From the NCBI GenBank assembly GCA_017530365.1, contig JAFXMK010000018.1:1-64000 (forward strand): DNA of 64,000 bases. Direction: 5' to 3'. Below the pieces are notes generated by a model that had not been told where the DNA came from, made no database searches, and saw only the letters and a list, made by a program, of their open reading frames with translations. Shown in pieces: positions 45,296-52,209 of this stretch. Every line of letters starts with the position of its first letter. Position 1 is the stretch's first letter. The stretch comes from Bacteroidales bacterium. GTDB lineage: Bacteria > Bacteroidota > Bacteroidia > Bacteroidales > F082. The position numbers were made by a program, and so were the translations under genes.

Positions 45296-45377
45296 AAAGA
45301 GTTAGGAGTGAGGAGTTAGGAGTGAGGAGTACTTTTTAGCCGAAGGTTTACTCCTCACTCCTAACTCCTCACTTCAT
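45296..45377. repeat. GAGTTAGGAGTGAG array forming a large palindrome at convergent gene ends
   Basis: Direct units of GAGTTAGGAGTGAGGAGT (about 45300-45330) are mirrored by ACTCCTCACTCCTAACTCC (about 45350-45372) around a 20-bp centre. The minus-strand reading supplies the mutS2 stop (SMK, TGA). The long stem could act as a bidirectional terminator. Confidence 0.8.
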
Positions 45378-47762
45378 ACTAATTCTTGTGATTCCCGCGC
45401 CTCCAGTCTCTAAAGAGGCGTCAGCGAAGCTTTTCACATCATGGTCGCGGCTGAGGAATTCCCTGATCAGTTTGCGCAGGATGCCGTTGCCTTTGCCGTG
45501 AAGAATGCTTACTTCCTTGATGCTGAGTAGCTTGGCCTCGTCGAGGTATTTGGCCACGGCATCGAGGGCTTCTTCAGCGCGTTTCCCACGGACATCCAAG
45601 GTCAGGTCGAAGTGTTCGGCCTTCTCGCTGAGGGTATCGGAGAGTCCCGACTGCCATTTGCGGATAGCTTTGCGGCCTTCGGCACGATTCACCTTACGGA
45701 GTTTGTCGAGTGAAGTGCGTAGCTTCACGGTGTCGAACAAGATGGTGGCATCGGTGTCGCTGATGGACACGATCTCGCCAACAATCTCCATCTCGTCGAT
45801 GCACACGGTGTCGCCCACCTTCAAAGCGATGTCGGTTTCTGGTTTTGGTTTCTTTGGTTCTGCCGCTTTCTTCGCGGTTTCGGTGATCTCTGCTTTTGTC
45901 TTCCTCAGCGCTTGACGGATCTCCTTGGTGCGCTCCTTTTCGGCTTGCGCCTCCTTGATTTCGCGGATGGTGCGCTCGATGCTGCTGTTGGCCTTGTCGA
46001 TGAGCTCCTGCGCTTCGTTGGCGGCATCGCGGAGATATTGTTTCTTTTTGGTCTCCAGCTCGTTAAGCAACTTCTTGTATTTTTCCACCACTTCGGAGAG
46101 AAGGGTATCGGCCACCTGAAGCTCACGTTCTTTCTTCTTGATGGCTTTCTTATCGACCTCAAGCTGTTGCAGCTGCTGTTCGAACTTCAGATGCTGGTCG
46201 CCGGTGATGTGGGCGGCATCGTCGAGGATGCGTTCAGGGAAGCCGGTCTTGCGGGCGATCTCGAAGGCAAAAGAGCTGCCGGGCTTGCCGGTGACCATGA
46301 TGTACATGGGTTGCATGAACTTGGTGTCGAACAGCATGGCGCCGTTGATGATGCCTTTGTGATGGTCTGCCAACAGTTTGAGGTTGGCGTAGTGGGTGGT
46401 GACGATGCCAAAAGCCTGTTTCTTATTGAGTTCCAATAGGATCGCTTCGGCGATGGCGCCGCCTAGCTGGGGCTCGGTACCTGTACCGAATTCATCAATG
46501 AGAAACAGGGAATTGTTGTTTGCGTTCTCCAACAGCACCTTCATGTTGCGCAGGTGTGAGCTGTAGGTGGAGAGGTCGTCGAGGATGCTCTGCTCGTCGC
46601 CGATGTCGATGAACAGGCTTTCAAAGAGGCCGCATTCGGAATCGACGTGCATGGGTACGCAGAGTCCGCATTGCAACATGTATTGGATGAGTCCCGTGGT
46701 CTTGAGGCAGACGGATTTGCCACCTGCGTTGGGACCTGAAATGACCAAGATGCGGTTCTCTTGGTCGAGGTTGAGATCTAGCGGAACGATATATTTGCCT
46801 TGCGATTTCAGCTTTTGCTCCAAAACGGGATGCCGTGCCTGGATCCATCTGAAAAAGGGCTCGTCGTGAATGACGGGTTTAATGCCGCCGATGCTTTGGC
46901 TGAGCAGTGCCTTTGCTCGGATGAAGTCGAGCTGTCCTAGCAGTTCCCAAGCCTTTAGCAGCTCAGGCAGGGAAGGACGAATGCGGTCGGTAAACTGCAA
47001 CAGGATACGTTGCACTTCGCGGCGTTCGGCATACTCCAGCTCCTTGATCTCGTTGGAGGTCTCCACGATCTCCGAAGGCTCGATATAGACGGTCTGTCCC
47101 GTTGCCGACTCGTCGTGGATGAAACCTTTCAAGGCGCGTTTGTCGCCAGCGTGGACGGGGATGACCATGCGACCGTCGCGGATGGTGATCTCGGCTTTGG
47201 GATCGACCCATCCCGAGGTCTTGGCGTCGCTCATGATTTGGCGGATGCGCCGCTCGATGCCGCCAGTCTTGCGATGGATGTCACGTCGGATCTCAGCCAG
47301 TTCAGGGGATGCGTTGTCGGGCATCTCGCCTTTATCATCGACGAGGCGGTTGGCTTCGTTGAACACGACAGGATCGACTTCGATGCCATCGGTGAGGGCG
47401 CAGAGCTCAGGGTAGTCCTCACGAGCCTCGCTCTGCCCGAACTTCAGGATGTAGCTCAAGGCATTCAGCGAGGGCTTGAGGGCGAACAGGTCTTCCAGGC
47501 TGATGCTCGTCCCTGGAATCCTGATATGTTGGAACGCTTCGCGCAGGTCATGGTAGTCCCTCACAGGGAAGGGTACGCCGTTTTGCAGCAGCTGCATGAA
47601 CTCCACGGTCTGGTCGAGGCTCCGCTCGATGGCTTCGCGATCGTTGCTGAAGTCCATCGTCTCGGCGCGTTCCAGTCCCATGGCACTGATGCAGTGCCCC
47701 TTGATGGCTTCCCGGATGTGGGTGAAACCGATCTTCTGCTCGAAGCGTTCCGGATAAATCAT
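45369..47762 (-). CDS. mutS2: Endonuclease MutS2
   Basis: The 797-residue product has a MutS core with the ABC ATPase P-loop GPNAGGKS (about 342-349), STYSSHLRNM (signature region, about 408) and LIDEFGTGTEP (Walker B, about 430). A long coiled coil follows (about 515-640), then a C-terminal Smr domain (about 722-797) with LDVRGKRAEEAL and HGKGNGILR, the nuclease motifs. It lacks the mismatch-binding domain I of MutS. Roles known for the family are suppression of recombination and rescue of collided ribosomes. Its stop codon belongs to a repeat unit. Confidence 0.96.
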   Translation of the reverse strand: MIYPERFEQKIGFTHIREAIKGHCISAMGLERAETMDFSNDREAIERSLDQTVEFMQLLQNGVPFPVRDYHDLREAFQHIRIPGTSISLEDLFALKPSLNALSYILKFGQSEAREDYPELCALTDGIEVDPVVFNEANRLVDDKGEMPDNASPELAEIRRDIHRKTGGIERRIRQIMSDAKTSGWVDPKAEITIRDGRMVIPVHAGDKRALKGFIHDESATGQTVYIEPSEIVETSNEIKELEYAERREVQRILLQFTDRIRPSLPELLKAWELLGQLDFIRAKALLSQSIGGIKPVIHDEPFFRWIQARHPVLEQKLKSQGKYIVPLDLNLDQENRILVISGPNAGGKSVCLKTTGLIQYMLQCGLCVPMHVDSECGLFESLFIDIGDEQSILDDLSTYSSHLRNMKVLLENANNNSLFLIDEFGTGTEPQLGGAIAEAILLELNKKQAFGIVTTHYANLKLLADHHKGIINGAMLFDTKFMQPMYIMVTGKPGSSFAFEIARKTGFPERILDDAAHITGDQHLKFEQQLQQLEVDKKAIKKKERELQVADTLLSEVVEKYKKLLNELETKKKQYLRDAANEAQELIDKANSSIERTIREIKEAQAEKERTKEIRQALRKTKAEITETAKKAAEPKKPKPETDIALKVGDTVCIDEMEIVGEIVSISDTDATILFDTVKLRTSLDKLRKVNRAEGRKAIRKWQSGLSDTLSEKAEHFDLTLDVRGKRAEEALDAVAKYLDEAKLLSIKEVSILHGKGNGILRKLIREFLSRDHDVKSFADASLETGGAGITRISMK

Positions 47763-47798
47763 GTTGTGATGATGCTATTTTGTTGAGGCTGTTCTGAA

Positions 47799-48305
47799 TC
47801 AATTGAAGCCGAAGCCACGGAGAACGGTCAGCACGCGTTCGTCGGTGGGATCTTCGATGTCCTCAGAGCCAACACGGACTGCCATTTTGCGGTCGGGGTT
47901 GTAGGTGAAGAAGGACAATTTGTATTTCCCAATGTTGGGAATGACTTTCCAGGTGTAGTCGCCGGTGACGATGTCTTCCAGATAATCTGCAGCGGGATAT
48001 TTGGTGAGGAATTGATCATAGTCTTCCTCAGTCCAGTCCTTGATATTGAAATCCGACCAGTCTTCCAAGTATTCGATGCCCATCTCGGAGTAGGCGTTGC
48101 TAACCTTCCATCCCTCGGTGGGAAGGTTCAAATGCCAGTCGTAGTGGTCCCAGTTAGTGGTCTCAGGAGCGGCGGGCTCTTCAACGACAGGTTCTTCTAC
48201 TACAGGTTCGTTTTGTGCTTGGGGTTCATTGGTTTTGGTGTTGTTGTTGCCGCATGCGGCGAACAGCATGGCAGCGGCTGCTGCGATAAAAAATGCTTTT
48301 TTCAT
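47799..48305 (-). CDS. Putative lipoprotein with acidic linker
   Basis: The 168-residue product starts with a lipoprotein signal (lipobox FAAC, Cys18). A Pro/Glu/Val-rich linker with tandem PVVEE units (about 30-50) leads into a C-terminal alpha/beta domain (about 53-168) with several Trp and Tyr residues. No family was recognised. It has its own promoter at 48335-48342, bordering the inverted repeat. Confidence 0.75.
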   Translation of the reverse strand: MKKAFFIAAAAAMLFAACGNNNTKTNEPQAQNEPVVEEPVVEEPAAPETTNWDHYDWHLNLPTEGWKVSNAYSEMGIEYLEDWSDFNIKDWTEEDYDQFLTKYPAADYLEDIVTGDYTWKVIPNIGKYKLSFFTYNPDRKMAVRVGSEDIEDPTDERVLTVLRGFGFN

Positions 48306-48334
48306 GATTAAAATGTTTGGGTTTTTTGAGGGTG

Positions 48335-48342
48335 CAAAGATA
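48335..48342 (-). promoter_or_regulatory. -7 box of the lipoprotein gene
   Basis: TATCTTTG on the minus strand, 30 bp from the ATG. The left inverted repeat of the island begins 8 bp further upstream, i.e. where the -33 element should be. Confidence 0.65.
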
Positions 48343-48349
48343 GTAATTT

Positions 48350-48579
48350 GTTACTTTTCTCTTGATAGAAAAGTAACCAAAAGATCAAGGCCAAAAACAT
48401 CGGCCCACCGCACAGCCTCTCTAAGTGGGGAGCCTCAAGGCGGGGAGTGCCTTCGTGCCGAAGGCAAACGCTCCGCTAAAGCTCCGCGCCCCGCCCTGAG
48501 TCTCAGCCCACTTAGTTCGGCTCTTGGCGAGCGCTGCTCCGGTTTTTGGCCTCGGCCCACGCGCCCAGCCCGTGACGGT
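48350..48579 (+). repeat. Left 230-bp inverted repeat of the restriction-type island
   Basis: It begins with the short palindrome GTTACTTTT-AAAAGTAAC and continues through CTCTCTAAGTGGG, GCAAACGCTCCGCTAAAGC and GCGCCCCGCCCTGAGTCTCA to GCCCGTG. It has no coding sense. The same sequence, roughly 85-90 percent identical by eye, is found inverted at 51214-51445. Confidence 0.85.
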
Positions 48580-48592
48580 GGGTTGTGCTTAT

Positions 48593-49675
48593 TTATTTCC
48601 CGCTCTTCCGACGGTTACACTCTCGGCAGAGCATCTGGCAGTTCTCGGCTATGGTACGTCCGCCATCACGCCACGGGGTAATGTGGTCAGCTTCCATCTG
48701 TTCGATTTCGAAGTGTTTCCCACAAACAGAACAGATGCCGTCCTGTCGCTCATAAACTTCTCGTTTCATGTTGTCATCGAAAGCCCGGATGTCGAGATGA
48801 TGCTCATCGTGGTCGAAGACGTAGGTGTAGATGCCTTTCTTTTTCTGAACATCACTATCAGCCATCAATCGTTTCACTTCAGTTTCCAAAACTGAAGCAT
48901 CCCAGATGCCTTCATGGTATTTGGCATATAGTGTACCCCAGTCCACGCCTTTCATCTCTCGACGATAGTTTGGGAATGTAGCTTTTACCCAGTTGATGAC
49001 GCTGCTGAAGTGGTTCCATAAGGCTACAGCATTTGGATCATGCTGATGGTTGCCCATATAGACTTCGATGTTGCCGTTTGAGATCCATCGTATAGCGATC
49101 TCAAGATAAGCCTGCCGATTTACTTCGCCCGACACATATTTACTGGCCAGGCCGTATGCCGCACAGTTGTTTTTACTGAAATAGCGCTTGGCATCACTCA
49201 CCCAAGAGCCCGCATACACAGCATTGCGCAGTTCTTGCTCGGTTAGTTCCTTGCCCGCGATGTTGATGGTCTTGAACCACTTGAGTTTTTCGCTATCGCT
49301 ACCGCTACAGATATAAACCTGTAGGGGATAGTCAAGGATCTGTTCTTGCTCGTCGGGCTGGAGGTTGTGGAAGTAGCGGAAGTTGAAGGCGAAGTCTCCA
49401 TTAACATATTGGCAAATGCTGATGGTTCGTTGTTGGCCGTCGATGATTTCAAAGGTGCCATCTTCACGGACAGCCCAATACATCACGTTGAGTGGGAAAC
49501 CATTGGTGAGGGTGTCGATGACGGCGTCGCGTTCCTTTTCGCCATAGACGAATTCGCGCTGGTAAGGTGGCCGTACATCTAGGTTGCCGCCGAAGGCACG
49601 CACACCATTCTCGTTATTGTCCTCGTAGCCCGCCGTCAGTTCGCGGACAGTGATCTTGTGGAGTTCGATGTTCAT
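48593..49675 (-). CDS. DUF262 (GmrSD/SspE-like) protein with C-terminal HNH nuclease domain
   Basis: The product has 360 residues from the ATG at 49675. The N-terminal DUF262 domain (about 1-200) has RPPYQREFVYGEKERDAVI and the nucleotide-site motif IDGQQRTISI. The C-terminus (about 312-360) is a zinc HNH nuclease: CSVCGK, ADHITPWRDGG, CxxC and N before RRK. DUF262 proteins with HNH-type domains are known as modification-dependent or NTP-driven nucleases (GmrSD, SspE, BrxU). An upstream in-frame ATG at 49765 would overlap the methyltransferase stop, but the extra 30 residues are the shadow of the methyltransferase's original tail, so 49675 is preferred. It is probably the nuclease partner of the adjacent methyltransferase. 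Confidence 0.85.
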   Translation of the reverse strand: MNIELHKITVRELTAGYEDNNENGVRAFGGNLDVRPPYQREFVYGEKERDAVIDTLTNGFPLNVMYWAVREDGTFEIIDGQQRTISICQYVNGDFAFNFRYFHNLQPDEQEQILDYPLQVYICSGSDSEKLKWFKTINIAGKELTEQELRNAVYAGSWVSDAKRYFSKNNCAAYGLASKYVSGEVNRQAYLEIAIRWISNGNIEVYMGNHQHDPNAVALWNHFSSVINWVKATFPNYRREMKGVDWGTLYAKYHEGIWDASVLETEVKRLMADSDVQKKKGIYTYVFDHDEHHLDIRAFDDNMKREVYERQDGICSVCGKHFEIEQMEADHITPWRDGGRTIAENCQMLCRECNRRKSGK

Positions 49676-49761
49676 TTGTATCTCGTTTTTTTGCCCTTTC
49701 AGGCCGTTATTTGCTATCAGCAGCCATTGACAAAGAGCCTTCTTCTTGATGGTATTCCACT

Positions 49762-50814
49762 TCATGATGGAGCTCGGTTTGGCGACGGCGGATGAGGATT
49801 CGAGAATAGGGTACGGTAACTACGCCGTCTATCATTCATGTAAAGATCTCCGTCAACGGTTCCTCTTTTCTGAATCTCTTTTCTGTATTTTTTATGTTCA
49901 GGTTTATATGGTTGGACGCCACATTCCAAACCTAATGTTGCGATGCCTAATCCGATGATCTCAAACTGTTCTGGATTGTATTTGTCCATGAATGTGATAG
50001 GAACACCCATGACACCATTATAATCCATTGGGATATCTGCCGTTTTATCAACGTTAATAGCATCGTAGTTTTCAAACTTTGGATATTCCTTAGGATTATA
50101 GGCCTTATATAGGATTAAATCTTCGTGACGTTTCTTTATTTCAAGATTTGTGAACCAATTTACCCCTGAAACTCGAATCATTCCTTCTCGATGGTCTCCG
50201 GCTGTAGCCACATCTTCGTATTTGCTAAAGAAGTGTCCTGCGCCGCCTTTAAAACCATACCCAAGCCATACTTTGTTATCCCTAATCAAGGGGAAGATCT
50301 CCCTATACCCAATTGCGTTTTGGTGTCCCACTATCACAAATTTCTTCTCGTATTTCATCAATTGTGCCATGTATTCGCGAAACAAGGAAAAGGGAGGATT
50401 GGTTACCACAATGTCTGCTTCTTTCAACAATTCAATACACTCTTTGGAACGGAAATCTCCATCACCATTGAAGTAGTGGATGCCGATTTCTTCGGGATCG
50501 GGCACTCGGTTTCCATTGCGATCGCCGAAATACTCCAACCAAATTGCACGTTCTGAATCGTTTTGGCTAAAAAGGTCTCTGTTCTGATTTTTATAGCAAG
50601 TAGTGATCAACTTTTTCAGCCCCAATTGTTCAAAATTGTAGCTGAAATAATGGAAGAAATTGCTCACACGAGGATCATCACAATTGCAGAGTACGGTCTT
50701 ACCTTTAAAATGTGCTTTATAGTGTTTCAGTTCGTTTTCAATATCAACTAATTGAGTATAAAACTCATCTTTTTTTGCTTTGTTTGCCGCATGAAGATTG
50801 ATGTTTCCTGCCAT
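49762..50814 (-). CDS. EcoRI-family adenine-specific DNA methyltransferase, frameshifted near its end
   Basis: The 350-residue product starts NINLHAANKAKKDEFYTQL and has VVTNPPFSLFREY with the catalytic NPPF at 139-142, FVIVGHQNAIGYREIF and GVMGVPITFMDKYNPEQF, all typical of the EcoRI-methylase family. It lacks a separate target-recognition domain. After GDLYMNDR (about residue 322) the current frame turns into low-complexity text. The adjacent frame continues with GVVTVPYSRILIRRR, the expected family end, to a stop at 49707. A one-base change near 49830 is therefore likely. Loss of about the last 15 conserved residues may or may not abolish activity. Confidence 0.85.
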   Translation of the reverse strand: MAGNINLHAANKAKKDEFYTQLVDIENELKHYKAHFKGKTVLCNCDDPRVSNFFHYFSYNFEQLGLKKLITTCYKNQNRDLFSQNDSERAIWLEYFGDRNGNRVPDPEEIGIHYFNGDGDFRSKECIELLKEADIVVTNPPFSLFREYMAQLMKYEKKFVIVGHQNAIGYREIFPLIRDNKVWLGYGFKGGAGHFFSKYEDVATAGDHREGMIRVSGVNWFTNLEIKKRHEDLILYKAYNPKEYPKFENYDAINVDKTADIPMDYNGVMGVPITFMDKYNPEQFEIIGLGIATLGLECGVQPYKPEHKKYRKEIQKRGTVDGDLYMNDRRRSYRTLFSNPHPPSPNRAPS

Positions 50815-50816
50815 TT

Positions 50817-50845
50817 GATTGATAGATTATGCAATGCTATCAATC
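50817..50845 (-). promoter_or_regulatory. Perfect 9-bp hairpin directly before the methyltransferase start codon
   Basis: GATTGATAG (50817-50825) pairs with CTATCAATC (50837-50845), with an 11-nt loop. It ends 2 bp before the start codon and would occlude ribosome access. Confidence 0.7.
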
Positions 50846-51147
50846 CGCAAGCGCAAAAGGAAAGGGTGCTTTCCTCATTGCGCTTACCAAGGTAACCCTG
50901 CAAGGAGACCTTCTAACGAGAACAAGTACTCACACCCTTAGGCATGAGCATTGCTATACTACCTCGTTAAAAGGATCCGCTTGCAATTGGCATCACCTTC
51001 ACTTATTATTTTCGTGTTTTATCTCCGTTAATCTTGCAGGGTTTTCGGTAAACGCGAAATAATAGCTAATGCTTTGTTTTATAATATGTTAATAATTACT
51101 TTTTTCTTTTTCTAAATATGTTTTATTCACAATCAATTTTTATAATG
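50817..51147 (-). ncRNA. Long structured 5' leader of the methyltransferase gene (candidate regulatory RNA)
   Basis: The promoter lies about 330 bp before the start codon and no reading frame fills the gap. Visible pairings are the 9-bp hairpin at 50817-50845, AAGCGCAA/TTGCGCTT (50849-50856 with 50878-50885) enclosing GGAAAG/CTTTCC, TTACC/GGTAA (50884-50895), and TAACGAG/CTCGTTA (50914-50920 with 50963-50969). A long-range GCAAGCG/CGCTTGC (50847-50853 with 50979-50985) competes with the second stem, which suggests a switch-like RNA. It matches no RNA family that was recognised. The 3' half (51000-51140) is AT-rich and unstructured. Confidence 0.55.
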
Positions 51148-51178
51148 CAAAGATATACATTCCCCCAACAAATGCAAA
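51148..51178 (-). promoter_or_regulatory. Promoter of the methyltransferase-DUF262 operon
   Basis: On the minus strand TATCTTTG (51148-51155) has TTTG (51175-51178) upstream at 19-bp spacing. It lies inside the island, just within the right repeat. Confidence 0.7.
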
Positions 51179-51213
51179 CAAAAGCGACTAAAACCCAACA
51201 AAAGCAGGAAATA

Positions 51214-51445
51214 CCTGCCACGGGATGGGCGCGCAGGCCACGGCCAAAAACGGGAGCAGCGGTAGCCAAAGAGCCGAACTAAGTGGGTTGAGACTCAGGG
51301 CGGGGCGCGGAGCTTTAGCGGAGCGTTTGCCTTCCGCAGGAAGGCATTCCCCGCCTTGAGGATCACCCACTTAGAGAGGCTGTGCAGCAGGCCGATGTTT
51401 TTGGCCTTGATTTTTTGGTTACTTTTGCATCAAGGCAAAAGTAAC
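51214..51445 (-). repeat. Right 230-bp inverted repeat of the restriction-type island
   Basis: Inverted copy of 48350-48579, ending outward in the palindrome GTTACTTTT-AAAAGTAAC. The outer end lies 6 bp before the cutC -7 box. Confidence 0.85.
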
Positions 51446-51451
51446 AATAAT

Positions 51452-51459
51452 TATCTTTG
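51452..51459 (+). promoter_or_regulatory. -7 box for cutC
   Basis: TATCTTTG, 19 bp before the ATG at 51478. The -33 region falls inside the right inverted repeat, whose GGTTACTTTTGC text would have to provide it. Confidence 0.65.
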
Positions 51460-51477
51460 CAAAAATTCTTTTCCATC

Positions 51478-52209
51478 ATGATCCGTCTCGAAATCTGTGC
51501 CAACGGCATACAATCCCTGCGTAACGCCATGGACGGCTGCGCCCAATGTGTTGAACTCTGCGAAGCTATCGAAGTAGGAGGACTGACGCCTTCTTTCGGA
51601 ACGCTTGCCAAAGCCATCGACCTCTCCTTCATTCCCATGCGTGTGCTCATCCGACCACGACCGGGCAACTACATTTATAATGAAGAGGAAATTGATATCA
51701 TGAAGACCGATATCATGCTCTGCAAGAAGCTGGGCTTCGAAGGCGTGGTGATCGGCGCCCTCAACGACGATGGCATGCTCGACGTAGCAGCTTTGAAAGC
51801 CCTCATGGAAGCAGGTGAGGGACTGAAATTCACTTTCCATCGTGCCATCGACGCCTGCGTGAATCCCTTGGAAGCCATGGAACAACTCATTGACTTGGGC
51901 TTCGACAAGGTGCTGACATCAGGTGGCAAACCTACCGCCGAAGAGGGCATCCCGATGATTGCCGAGATGCAGCTGCGTTTCGGCGACCGTATCGCCATCA
52001 TGCCTGGCGGTGGCATCAACTTGGGTAATGTGATGGACATCGTCAACCAGACGGGCGTGGTCAACGTGCATGCCTCGCTGGGTCACTGGGTGCCGCGCTT
52101 TAACGAGAAGCTCTATCCCAACCAGGTGGATAACACCGGTGCCGCCATGGTGTGGACCGAATCAAATTATGACATCATCTACGAAATGGAAAAGCTGATT
52201 AACCCATGA
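51478..52209 (+). CDS. cutC: CutC family protein
   Basis: The 243-residue product is a TIM barrel with LEICANGIQSLRNAMDGCAQCVEL at the start (split in text: EICANG, GCAQ), RVLIRPRPGNYIYN (about 53-66), FHRAIDACVNP (about 120) and LTSGGKPTAEEG (about 145). The family was named for copper homeostasis, but its real reaction is unsettled. The start at 51478 is chosen because the longer frame overlaps the promoter. It overlaps the next gene by 4 bp. Confidence 0.93.
   Translation: MIRLEICANGIQSLRNAMDGCAQCVELCEAIEVGGLTPSFGTLAKAIDLSFIPMRVLIRPRPGNYIYNEEEIDIMKTDIMLCKKLGFEGVVIGALNDDGMLDVAALKALMEAGEGLKFTFHRAIDACVNPLEAMEQLIDLGFDKVLTSGGKPTAEEGIPMIAEMQLRFGDRIAIMPGGGINLGNVMDIVNQTGVVNVHASLGHWVPRFNEKLYPNQVDNTGAAMVWTESNYDIIYEMEKLINP

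What the first reader, a model, noticed from the sequence alone, without database searches (positions are those of the whole stretch)
48350..51445. Inverted-repeat-bounded island pairing an EcoRI-type methyltransferase with a DUF262-HNH protein
Two 230-bp inverted repeats enclose one operon: an EcoRI-family adenine methyltransferase and a DUF262 protein (IDGQQRT motif) with a C-terminal HNH nuclease domain. No classic EcoRI-like endonuclease is present. DUF262 plus HNH proteins are known as NTP-driven nucleases that sense DNA modification, so this may be a defence system in which the partner methyltransferase marks self DNA and the DUF262-HNH protein cuts unmarked or wrongly marked DNA. The repeats make it look like a self-contained movable cassette.
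Basis: partly seen in the sequence, partly recalled or inferred. Interest (0 to 1): 0.8.

Follow-up and report, generated by a model that had tools for sequence, protein, structure and literature searches.

The report
Repeat-bracketed, swappable restriction-modification gene cassette
A pair of long mirrored repeats in a gut Bacteroidales bacterium frames a two-gene DNA-defence system, and relatives carry the same kind of frame at a few fixed places with different genes inside, which suggests a slot for exchanging defence and other accessory genes.

Summary
Arms at 48348-48574 (+) and 51219-51447 (-) are 90% identical inverted repeats enclosing one operon: EcoRI-family adenine methyltransferase (MTase), then a DUF262-HNH protein. 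The pair is a widespread two-gene restriction-modification (RM) system: 65 of 78 MTase places in 173 family genomes, and 73 of 80 loci from many phyla, have the nuclease gene beside the MTase, MTase first. PADLOC already has a full-length 'Type II restriction enzyme' model for the nuclease, so the pair is a known kind. The frame is more unusual. The same arms bracket other cargo in this genome and relatives: helicase, deiminase operon, two unrelated RM systems, a toxin-like gene; no transposase among the 20 cargo proteins scanned. Cargo differs sharply between near relatives whose flanks and arms match; arms mostly, not always, track site and side. Empty sites exist. The terminal hairpin shows strong compensatory covariation. 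Some DUF262-HNH nucleases 95-98% identical serve MTases only about 50% identical, hinting that specificity lies in the MTase. The window's MTase has a C-terminal frame break, so this copy may be impaired. Best reading: an RM cassette in a recombination slot made of structured, non-autonomous repeats.

The parts
48348..48574 (+). left arm, ~230 bp structured repeat, outer end at 48350
   Evidence: 11 arm matches in own genome
48350..48377 (+). outer terminal hairpin of left arm (11-bp stem, 6-nt loop)
   Evidence: covariation of the hairpin family
48593..49675 (-). DUF262 (ParB/Srx-like)-HNH putative restriction nuclease, 360 aa (ORF extends to 49765)
   Evidence: Pfam; PADLOC PDLC03418 REase_II 443.5 bits over the whole model; alignment; model pLDDT 86.1; best PDB fold match BrxU, weak
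49762..50814 (-). EcoRI-family adenine-specific DNA methyltransferase, C-terminal tail lost by a frame break
   Evidence: PF13651 454.9 bits; PADLOC MTase_II PDLC03297 389.1 bits; alignment with the G125 copy
50815..51218 (.). AT-rich leader between MTase start and right arm (36.4% GC against 51.1% for the window)
51219..51447 (-). right arm, inverted copy
51418..51445 (-). outer terminal hairpin of right arm
47799..48305 (-). flank: 168-aa putative lipoprotein gene (by eye; no Pfam match)
   Evidence: same flank in G115, G083, G125, G058, G068
51457..52209 (+). flank: CutC family gene; a MutS2-like gene (45369-47762, -) lies beyond the other flank

Best explanation
It is a two-gene restriction-modification system sitting in a recombination slot. 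Shown by comparison: the slot lies between MutS2 and CutC and is framed by two inverted copies of a ~230-bp repeat with a conserved terminal hairpin; the same repeat frames other cargo at other sites; between near relatives the cargo differs while flanks and arms match; no recombinase or transposase was found among the cargo proteins scanned. Inferred: the repeat began as a non-autonomous MITE-like element, and its copies now act as portable homology handles, so homologous recombination between incoming and resident arms (or within shared cargo genes) replaces the cargo. Inferred from the families: the MTase marks adenines in self DNA, and the DUF262-HNH protein, gated by an NTP, cuts unmarked incoming DNA with its HNH domain. 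The loose pairing of nuclease and MTase suggests, but does not show, that target choice lies in the MTase.
For: RM pair: 65 of 78 MTase places paired, all MTase-first; 45 of 45 distinct pairs in fetched loci MTase-first on one strand; 73 of 80 loci, labelled Bacteroidota, Paenibacillus, Rothia, Campylobacterales, Fibrobacter, Planctomycetota and others; plasmids too, with an annotated EcoRI-family MTase under the match in 10 of the 20 rows listed. Slot: 17 inverted-arm elements (16 of 44 fetched loci, chosen for arm or RM hits, plus the window; six of the 16 have a partial arm) with differing cargo. Swap: G000 against G115 flanks 93.6-97.5%, arms 92.5 and 96.5%, cargo 55-78%; G000 against G125 MTase 97.3% although CutC is 80.6% and the next gene 69.5%. 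Arms: 13 of 19 with a same-site, same-side counterpart have it as nearest relative (counted). Empty sites: GldD site empty in G000, filled by about 3450 bp in G115, flanks 95.6-96.9%; lysS-YicC empty in G058; MutS2 and CutC 49-58 bp apart in G060, G091, G122, G116, G107. Hairpin: 45 of 253 cells changed on both sides, 96.4% paired against 78.0% in shuffles.
Against: No recombination event was observed; all is comparison of draft genomes, and repeats break assemblies (G125's cassette lies on two contigs). Six of 19 arms do not group by site and side, the window's own left arm among them: its nearest relative is a deiminase-site arm of the same genome, 95.6%. Mosaic boundaries could come from ordinary recombination in the flanks without help from the arms. 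The discrete insertions look as much like transposition as like exchange. By my count about half of the nine cargo kinds are not defence genes. Most RM pairs elsewhere have no long arms (3 of 68). The window's MTase is frame-broken. No phage-restriction or methylation data.
Confidence: 0.55

Rival explanations
1. The element is a mobile insertion cassette: a transposase elsewhere in the cell recognises the hairpin ends in trans and moves arms plus cargo as a unit; short solo copies are its MITEs.
For: The terminal ~42 bp recur at 84-95% in six plasmid records (Parabacteroides, Ilyobacter, Aureibacter, Persicobacter), two-ended in Ilyobacter and Parabacteroides; solo copies of 225-304 bp (L044, L108, L130); discrete filled and empty sites; the helicase cassette at different sites in G000 and G115 and the deiminase cassette on different sides of lysS in G000 and G074.
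Against: No transposase among the 20 cargo proteins scanned (small ORFs and some others not scanned, and the ORF list was cut); no clear target-site duplication at the GldD or lysS sites; arms group by site and side in 13 of 19 cases; Y1 (RAYT/IS200-type) transposase genes absent from arm-bearing G060, G068, G080, G125 and G133 (drafts, 73-93% complete).
Confidence: 0.33
2. The DUF262-HNH protein is a modification-dependent nuclease (GmrSD/BrxU/SspE-like) that reads the MTase's mark or a phage mark, rather than cutting unmarked sites.
For: DUF262 domain with DGQQR; best PDB fold match is BrxU (weak, E 8.9e-4, TM 0.21); in Ssp a DUF262-DUF1524 protein works with a modification module (passages of PMC10952713).
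Against: The MTase-first operon conserved across phyla fits protection by methylation; cutting one's own mark would be suicidal unless gated; no DUF1524; PADLOC files relatives as Type II enzymes.
Confidence: 0.2
3. The arms are ordinary intergenic REP/terminator-like repeats, and the RM operon merely happens to lie between two of them.
For: Some arms start right after stop codons; they fold strongly; 46 of 99 genus genomes carry matches, many of them short or single in the list (capped).
Against: Seventeen elements have outer ends facing outward around cargo; cargo but not flanks differs between near relatives; the empty GldD and lysS-YicC sites lack arms and cargo together.
Confidence: 0.1

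Closest known systems
Type II restriction-modification systems (PADLOC REase_II PDLC03418 / MTase_II PDLC03297)
   Same: Two adjacent genes, MTase and putative endonuclease; the nuclease matches the whole PADLOC model
   Different: Nuclease is a DUF262-HNH protein, not an EcoRI-type enzyme; specificity and cofactor untested; some near-identical nucleases go with divergent MTases
GmrSD / BrxU / SspE (DUF262 + DUF1524 enzymes)
   Same: DUF262 domain with DGQQR and a His-Me finger nuclease domain
   Different: Canonical HNH (PF01844) in place of DUF1524, shorter, usually beside an adenine MTase
RM systems flanked by long inverted repeats (Furuta et al. 2010; paper not held, known from passages of PMC3874152 and PMC3031569)
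   Same: RM genes framed by imperfect inverted repeats, suggestive of mobility
   Different: Here the same arms frame unrelated cargo at several conserved sites, and cargo changes while most arms stay
Mobile insertion cassettes / MITEs (search listing only; otherwise recalled)
   Same: Transposase-less element ends around passenger genes; solo short copies
   Different: Very long structured arms, no transposase identified, partial site fidelity
Neisseria minimal mobile elements (recalled, not tested)
   Same: Exchangeable RM cassettes between fixed genes by homologous recombination
   Different: Here homology comes from a dispersed repeat as well as from flanking genes

Membership tests
Type II RM system | DNA methyltransferase gene | tested here: met
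   PF13651 454.9 bits; core intact, tail frame-broken in the window
Type II RM system | separate endonuclease gene beside it, conserved association | tested here: met
Type II RM system | nuclease recognises the same sequence by itself and cuts there, blocked by methylation | not testable with these tools
   weak nuclease-MTase covariation among close relatives makes independent recognition doubtful
GmrSD (Type IV) | DUF262 with DGQQR motif | tested here: met
GmrSD (Type IV) | DUF1524 nuclease domain | tested here: not met
   HNH PF01844/PF14279 instead
GmrSD (Type IV) | acts on modified DNA | not testable with these tools
   no assay
EcoRI RM system | EcoRI-type endonuclease partner | tested here: not met
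   only DUF262-HNH found beside the MTase between the arms
Transposon / MITE | inverted terminal repeats | tested here: met
Transposon / MITE | target-site duplication | tested here: inconclusive
   none clear at the GldD and lysS-YicC sites; a possible short one beside an Ilyobacter copy by eye
Transposon / MITE | cognate transposase | tested here: inconclusive
   none among 20 cargo proteins scanned; Y1_Tnp distribution does not match; other transposase families not searched

The most novel reading that the evidence does not exclude
The DUF262-HNH protein has little or no sequence specificity of its own: one near-constant nuclease is directed by interchangeable EcoRI-family MTases whose variable blocks set the target, so swapping the MTase by recombination gives a new restriction specificity at once, in a two-gene format outside Types I and III; and hairpin-ended arms provide a genome-wide set of exchange slots for such cargo.
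Probability: 0.3. Interest if true: 0.78.

Novelty: new variant of a known kind. Interest (0 to 1): 0.55.

Why it matters
If the slot reading is right, a dispersed, structured, non-autonomous repeat gives uncultured gut Bacteroidales a ready-made way to trade defence and other cassettes without carrying a recombinase. If the loose pairing reflects MTase-borne specificity, this common pair, for which my searches found no biochemical study, would be a compact, reprogrammable restriction system, directly testable by methylome sequencing of two relatives with the same nuclease.

Tried and rejected
Known RNA family in the arms: Rfam scan of 47700-51600 at E up to 1, no match. Terminal module in phages: first 48 bp of the arm, no match in the phage collection at E up to 0.01. 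RAYT/IS200-type mobiliser: Y1_Tnp in 70 of 99 genus genomes but missing from at least five arm-bearing drafts, so not supported. Close co-evolution of nuclease and MTase: Mantel r 0.72 over 44 pairs overall, but 0.18-0.34 by nuclease segment within the 28 close ones (p 0.01-0.11). Solved relatives by sequence: HNH domain only for the nuclease, none for the MTase. The MTase model (of the relative in L229, not of the window's copy; pLDDT 70.8) gave no PDB match at E 0.001 or better. Long arms as a general property of this RM pair: rejected. Literature: searches (no paper; two unrelated) on transposase-less defence cassettes and rumen Bacteroidales repeats; one search gave Porphyromonas/Prevotella MITE papers, seen as a listing only. 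A mis-aligned hairpin alignment was dropped; 7 of the 30 distinct hairpins (29 nt long) were left out of the count; the five core stem pairs are constant because the search pattern demanded them. In the tally, split hits to one gene were merged by hand before counting.
Full report
Observation. The two arms exist where stated and are far beyond chance. Between them lie the MTase and the DUF262-HNH gene on the minus strand, plus an AT-rich leader. The window's MTase differs from its closest relative by a C-terminal frame break; the catalytic core is intact. Whether this is an assembly error of a draft genome or real cannot be told here.

What the pair is. PF13651 hits occur in 54 of 173 family genomes, at 78 places after merging split hits by hand. 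Of these 78, 65 have a DUF262-HNH hit (E up to 1e-10) within 1.5 kb on the same strand, in each case downstream. Of the 13 others some are at contig ends or fragments; I did not follow each. Conversely 15 of 80 nuclease-type hits had no MTase hit beside them, many of them fragments or distant hits. Of the seven misses, five begin within 150 bp of the contig start, one has the MTase downstream (L241) and one has none in the 1.4 kb available (L207). Plasmid records also show the pair. PADLOC has models for both, labelled Type II. So the pair is a known kind of predicted RM system. The paper searches gave no biochemical study of it (listings; PMC4619093, PMC10952713, PMC12707154 and PMC10853773 seen in passages).

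Mechanism of the pair. The predicted nuclease structure (pLDDT 86.1, pTM 0.60) matches BrxU weakly (E 8.9e-4, TM 0.21) and the HNH nickase 4h9d locally. In the DUF262 passages read the DGQQR motif is assigned to NTP binding and the His-Me finger domain to DNA cutting. A classical type II enzyme should track its MTase's specificity. In 103 non-redundant systems, 76 comparisons have nucleases at least 95% identical; their MTases range from 47 to 99% identity (median 73%), and 19 of 76 are under 60%. These comparisons are not independent: the largest nuclease cluster (11 systems) holds three MTase clusters (9, 1 and 1 systems), another of 4 holds two, and two further clusters (6 and 4) hold one each. 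Pairwise views show the MTase body divergent and its C-terminal tail nearly identical next to the near-identical nuclease (L065 against L022), which looks like a recombination footprint. In that cluster, which is dominated by nine similar MTases, conservation is lowest near residues 1-20, 121-140, 221-240 and 321-360 of L033. This fits MTase-borne specificity, but two MTases 50% identical may still share a target, and over all 44 pairs tested the two proteins do co-vary (Mantel r 0.72), so it stays a hypothesis.

The frame. In the window's genome the arm matches 11 stretches: this cassette (2), an inverted pair around a PAD_porph/agmatine-deiminase-like operon between YicC-like and lysS genes (3 pieces; gene names by eye), one around a UvrD-like helicase with Zn ribbon (2, the second only 47 bp), a solo copy (3 overlapping pieces) and a fragment (1). 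In the genus 46 of 99 genomes match (in many genomes only 8 of more candidates were scored, and the list is cut). I fetched 44 loci chosen for arm or RM hits; 16 of them plus the window show outward-facing inverted pairs more than 40 bp apart, six of the 16 with a partial arm (L043, L114, L122, L129, L139, L142). Three RM loci among the 44 (L119, L126, L141) show no arm. Cargo includes this RM pair (in G115 with a nucleotidyltransferase/HepT pair; in G083 as a remnant), an N6_N4 MTase with an unknown 293-aa partner (G133), an Eco57I-type MTase with a 235-aa partner (G068, at the same CutC site), helicases (G000, G115), deiminase operons (G000, G115, G125, G083, G074), a carbon-nitrogen-hydrolase-like protein (G074), a PBECR1 nuclease-like protein (G080), a CoiA-like protein (G055) and an unknown 551-aa protein (G083) (Pfam on 20 proteins, PADLOC on 10 of them). 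One pair is nearly empty, arms 42 bp apart (L136). By my count about half of these nine kinds are not obviously defence.

Exchange. Between G000 and its close relative G115 the RM-site flanks are 93.6-97.5% identical, the arms 92.5 and 96.5% and the cargo 55-78%. Between G000 and the more distant G125 the MTase is 97.3% identical while CutC is 80.6% and the next gene 69.5%: the MTase half moved recently between lineages. Of 19 arms that have a same-site, same-side counterpart in the arm set, 13 have it as nearest relative (counted): 7 of 8 at the deiminase site, 4 of 7 at the RM site, 2 of 4 at the GldD site. The window's left arm is an exception, closest to a deiminase-site arm of its own genome (95.6%), as gene conversion or spread between sites would give. 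The deiminase cassette sits on different sides of lysS in G000 and G074, and the helicase cassette at different sites in G000 and G115, so relocation also happens. Empty sites are seen at GldD, lysS-YicC and MutS2-CutC (49-58 bp between the matched proteins in five genomes). No clear target duplication was found.

The hairpin. The outer 28 nt of the arm form an 11-bp stem. Thirty distinct versions were found. In the 23 of equal length, all six variable pairs show changes on both sides (45 of 253 cells), no cell keeps pairing through a one-sided change, and 9 cells are unpaired; 96.4% of cells pair against 78.0% in shuffles and at most 63.5% when slid. The five core pairs are constant by the search pattern. 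So the folded form seems to matter, as DNA or RNA. The ~42-bp end recurs in six plasmid records of Bacteroidota and Fusobacteriota, two-ended in Ilyobacter and Parabacteroides, so the end module is wider than this clade and independent of RM cargo.

Source organism. G115 contig 13 and G109 contig 3 have the same lengths as CADCGK010000013.1 and CADADR010000003.1, uncultured Bacteroidia genomes of the RUG series (rumen, recalled), so the window probably comes from a related gut Bacteroidales draft genome. This is an inference.

Verdict. The RM pair is a known predicted kind; the repeat-framed exchange slot with varied cargo and hairpin ends is a new variant of known ideas (RM flanked by inverted repeats; mobile insertion cassettes; minimal mobile elements).

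Noticed in passing
G000:C50:44019-46588 (L042): A second arm-bounded cassette: PAD_porph/agmatine-deiminase-like protein with two small proteins without a Pfam match; related cassettes at the lysS-YicC site in G115, G125 and G083.
   Followed up: partly
G000:C26:25653-28915 (L043): Third arm-bounded cassette with a 944-aa UvrD-like helicase carrying a Topo-type Zn ribbon; matches to PADLOC GajB and RTasHel models cover only parts of them.
   Followed up: partly
window 49762-50814: MTase C-terminus read in another frame than in relatives; may be an assembly error or a decaying gene.
   Followed up: partly
L195, L196, L197, L199: A 309-aa Fic-like gene lies between the MTase and the DUF262-HNH gene in four gut MAGs (name by eye, not scanned).
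   Followed up: no
L348 4880-5440; L347 3990-4600: Short two-ended elements with the same terminal hairpin in Ilyobacter and Parabacteroides plasmids; the latter spans an annotated 'smalltalk protein'.
   Followed up: partly
G102:C13 and G120:C9: EcoRI-family MTase beside a different, only ~30% identical DUF262 protein: a possible second partner family.
   Followed up: no
G000:C19 and G000:C28: Two contigs of the same assembly overlap over 4664 bp at 99.4%, suggesting strain mixture or a redundant contig.
   Followed up: no
MutS2-CutC spacer in G056 and G133 (L148, L151): The same spacer holds other insertions in relatives: the lipoprotein gene plus a small ORF in G056; a small membrane-protein gene with a hairpin-like remnant in G133 (by eye).
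   Followed up: partly
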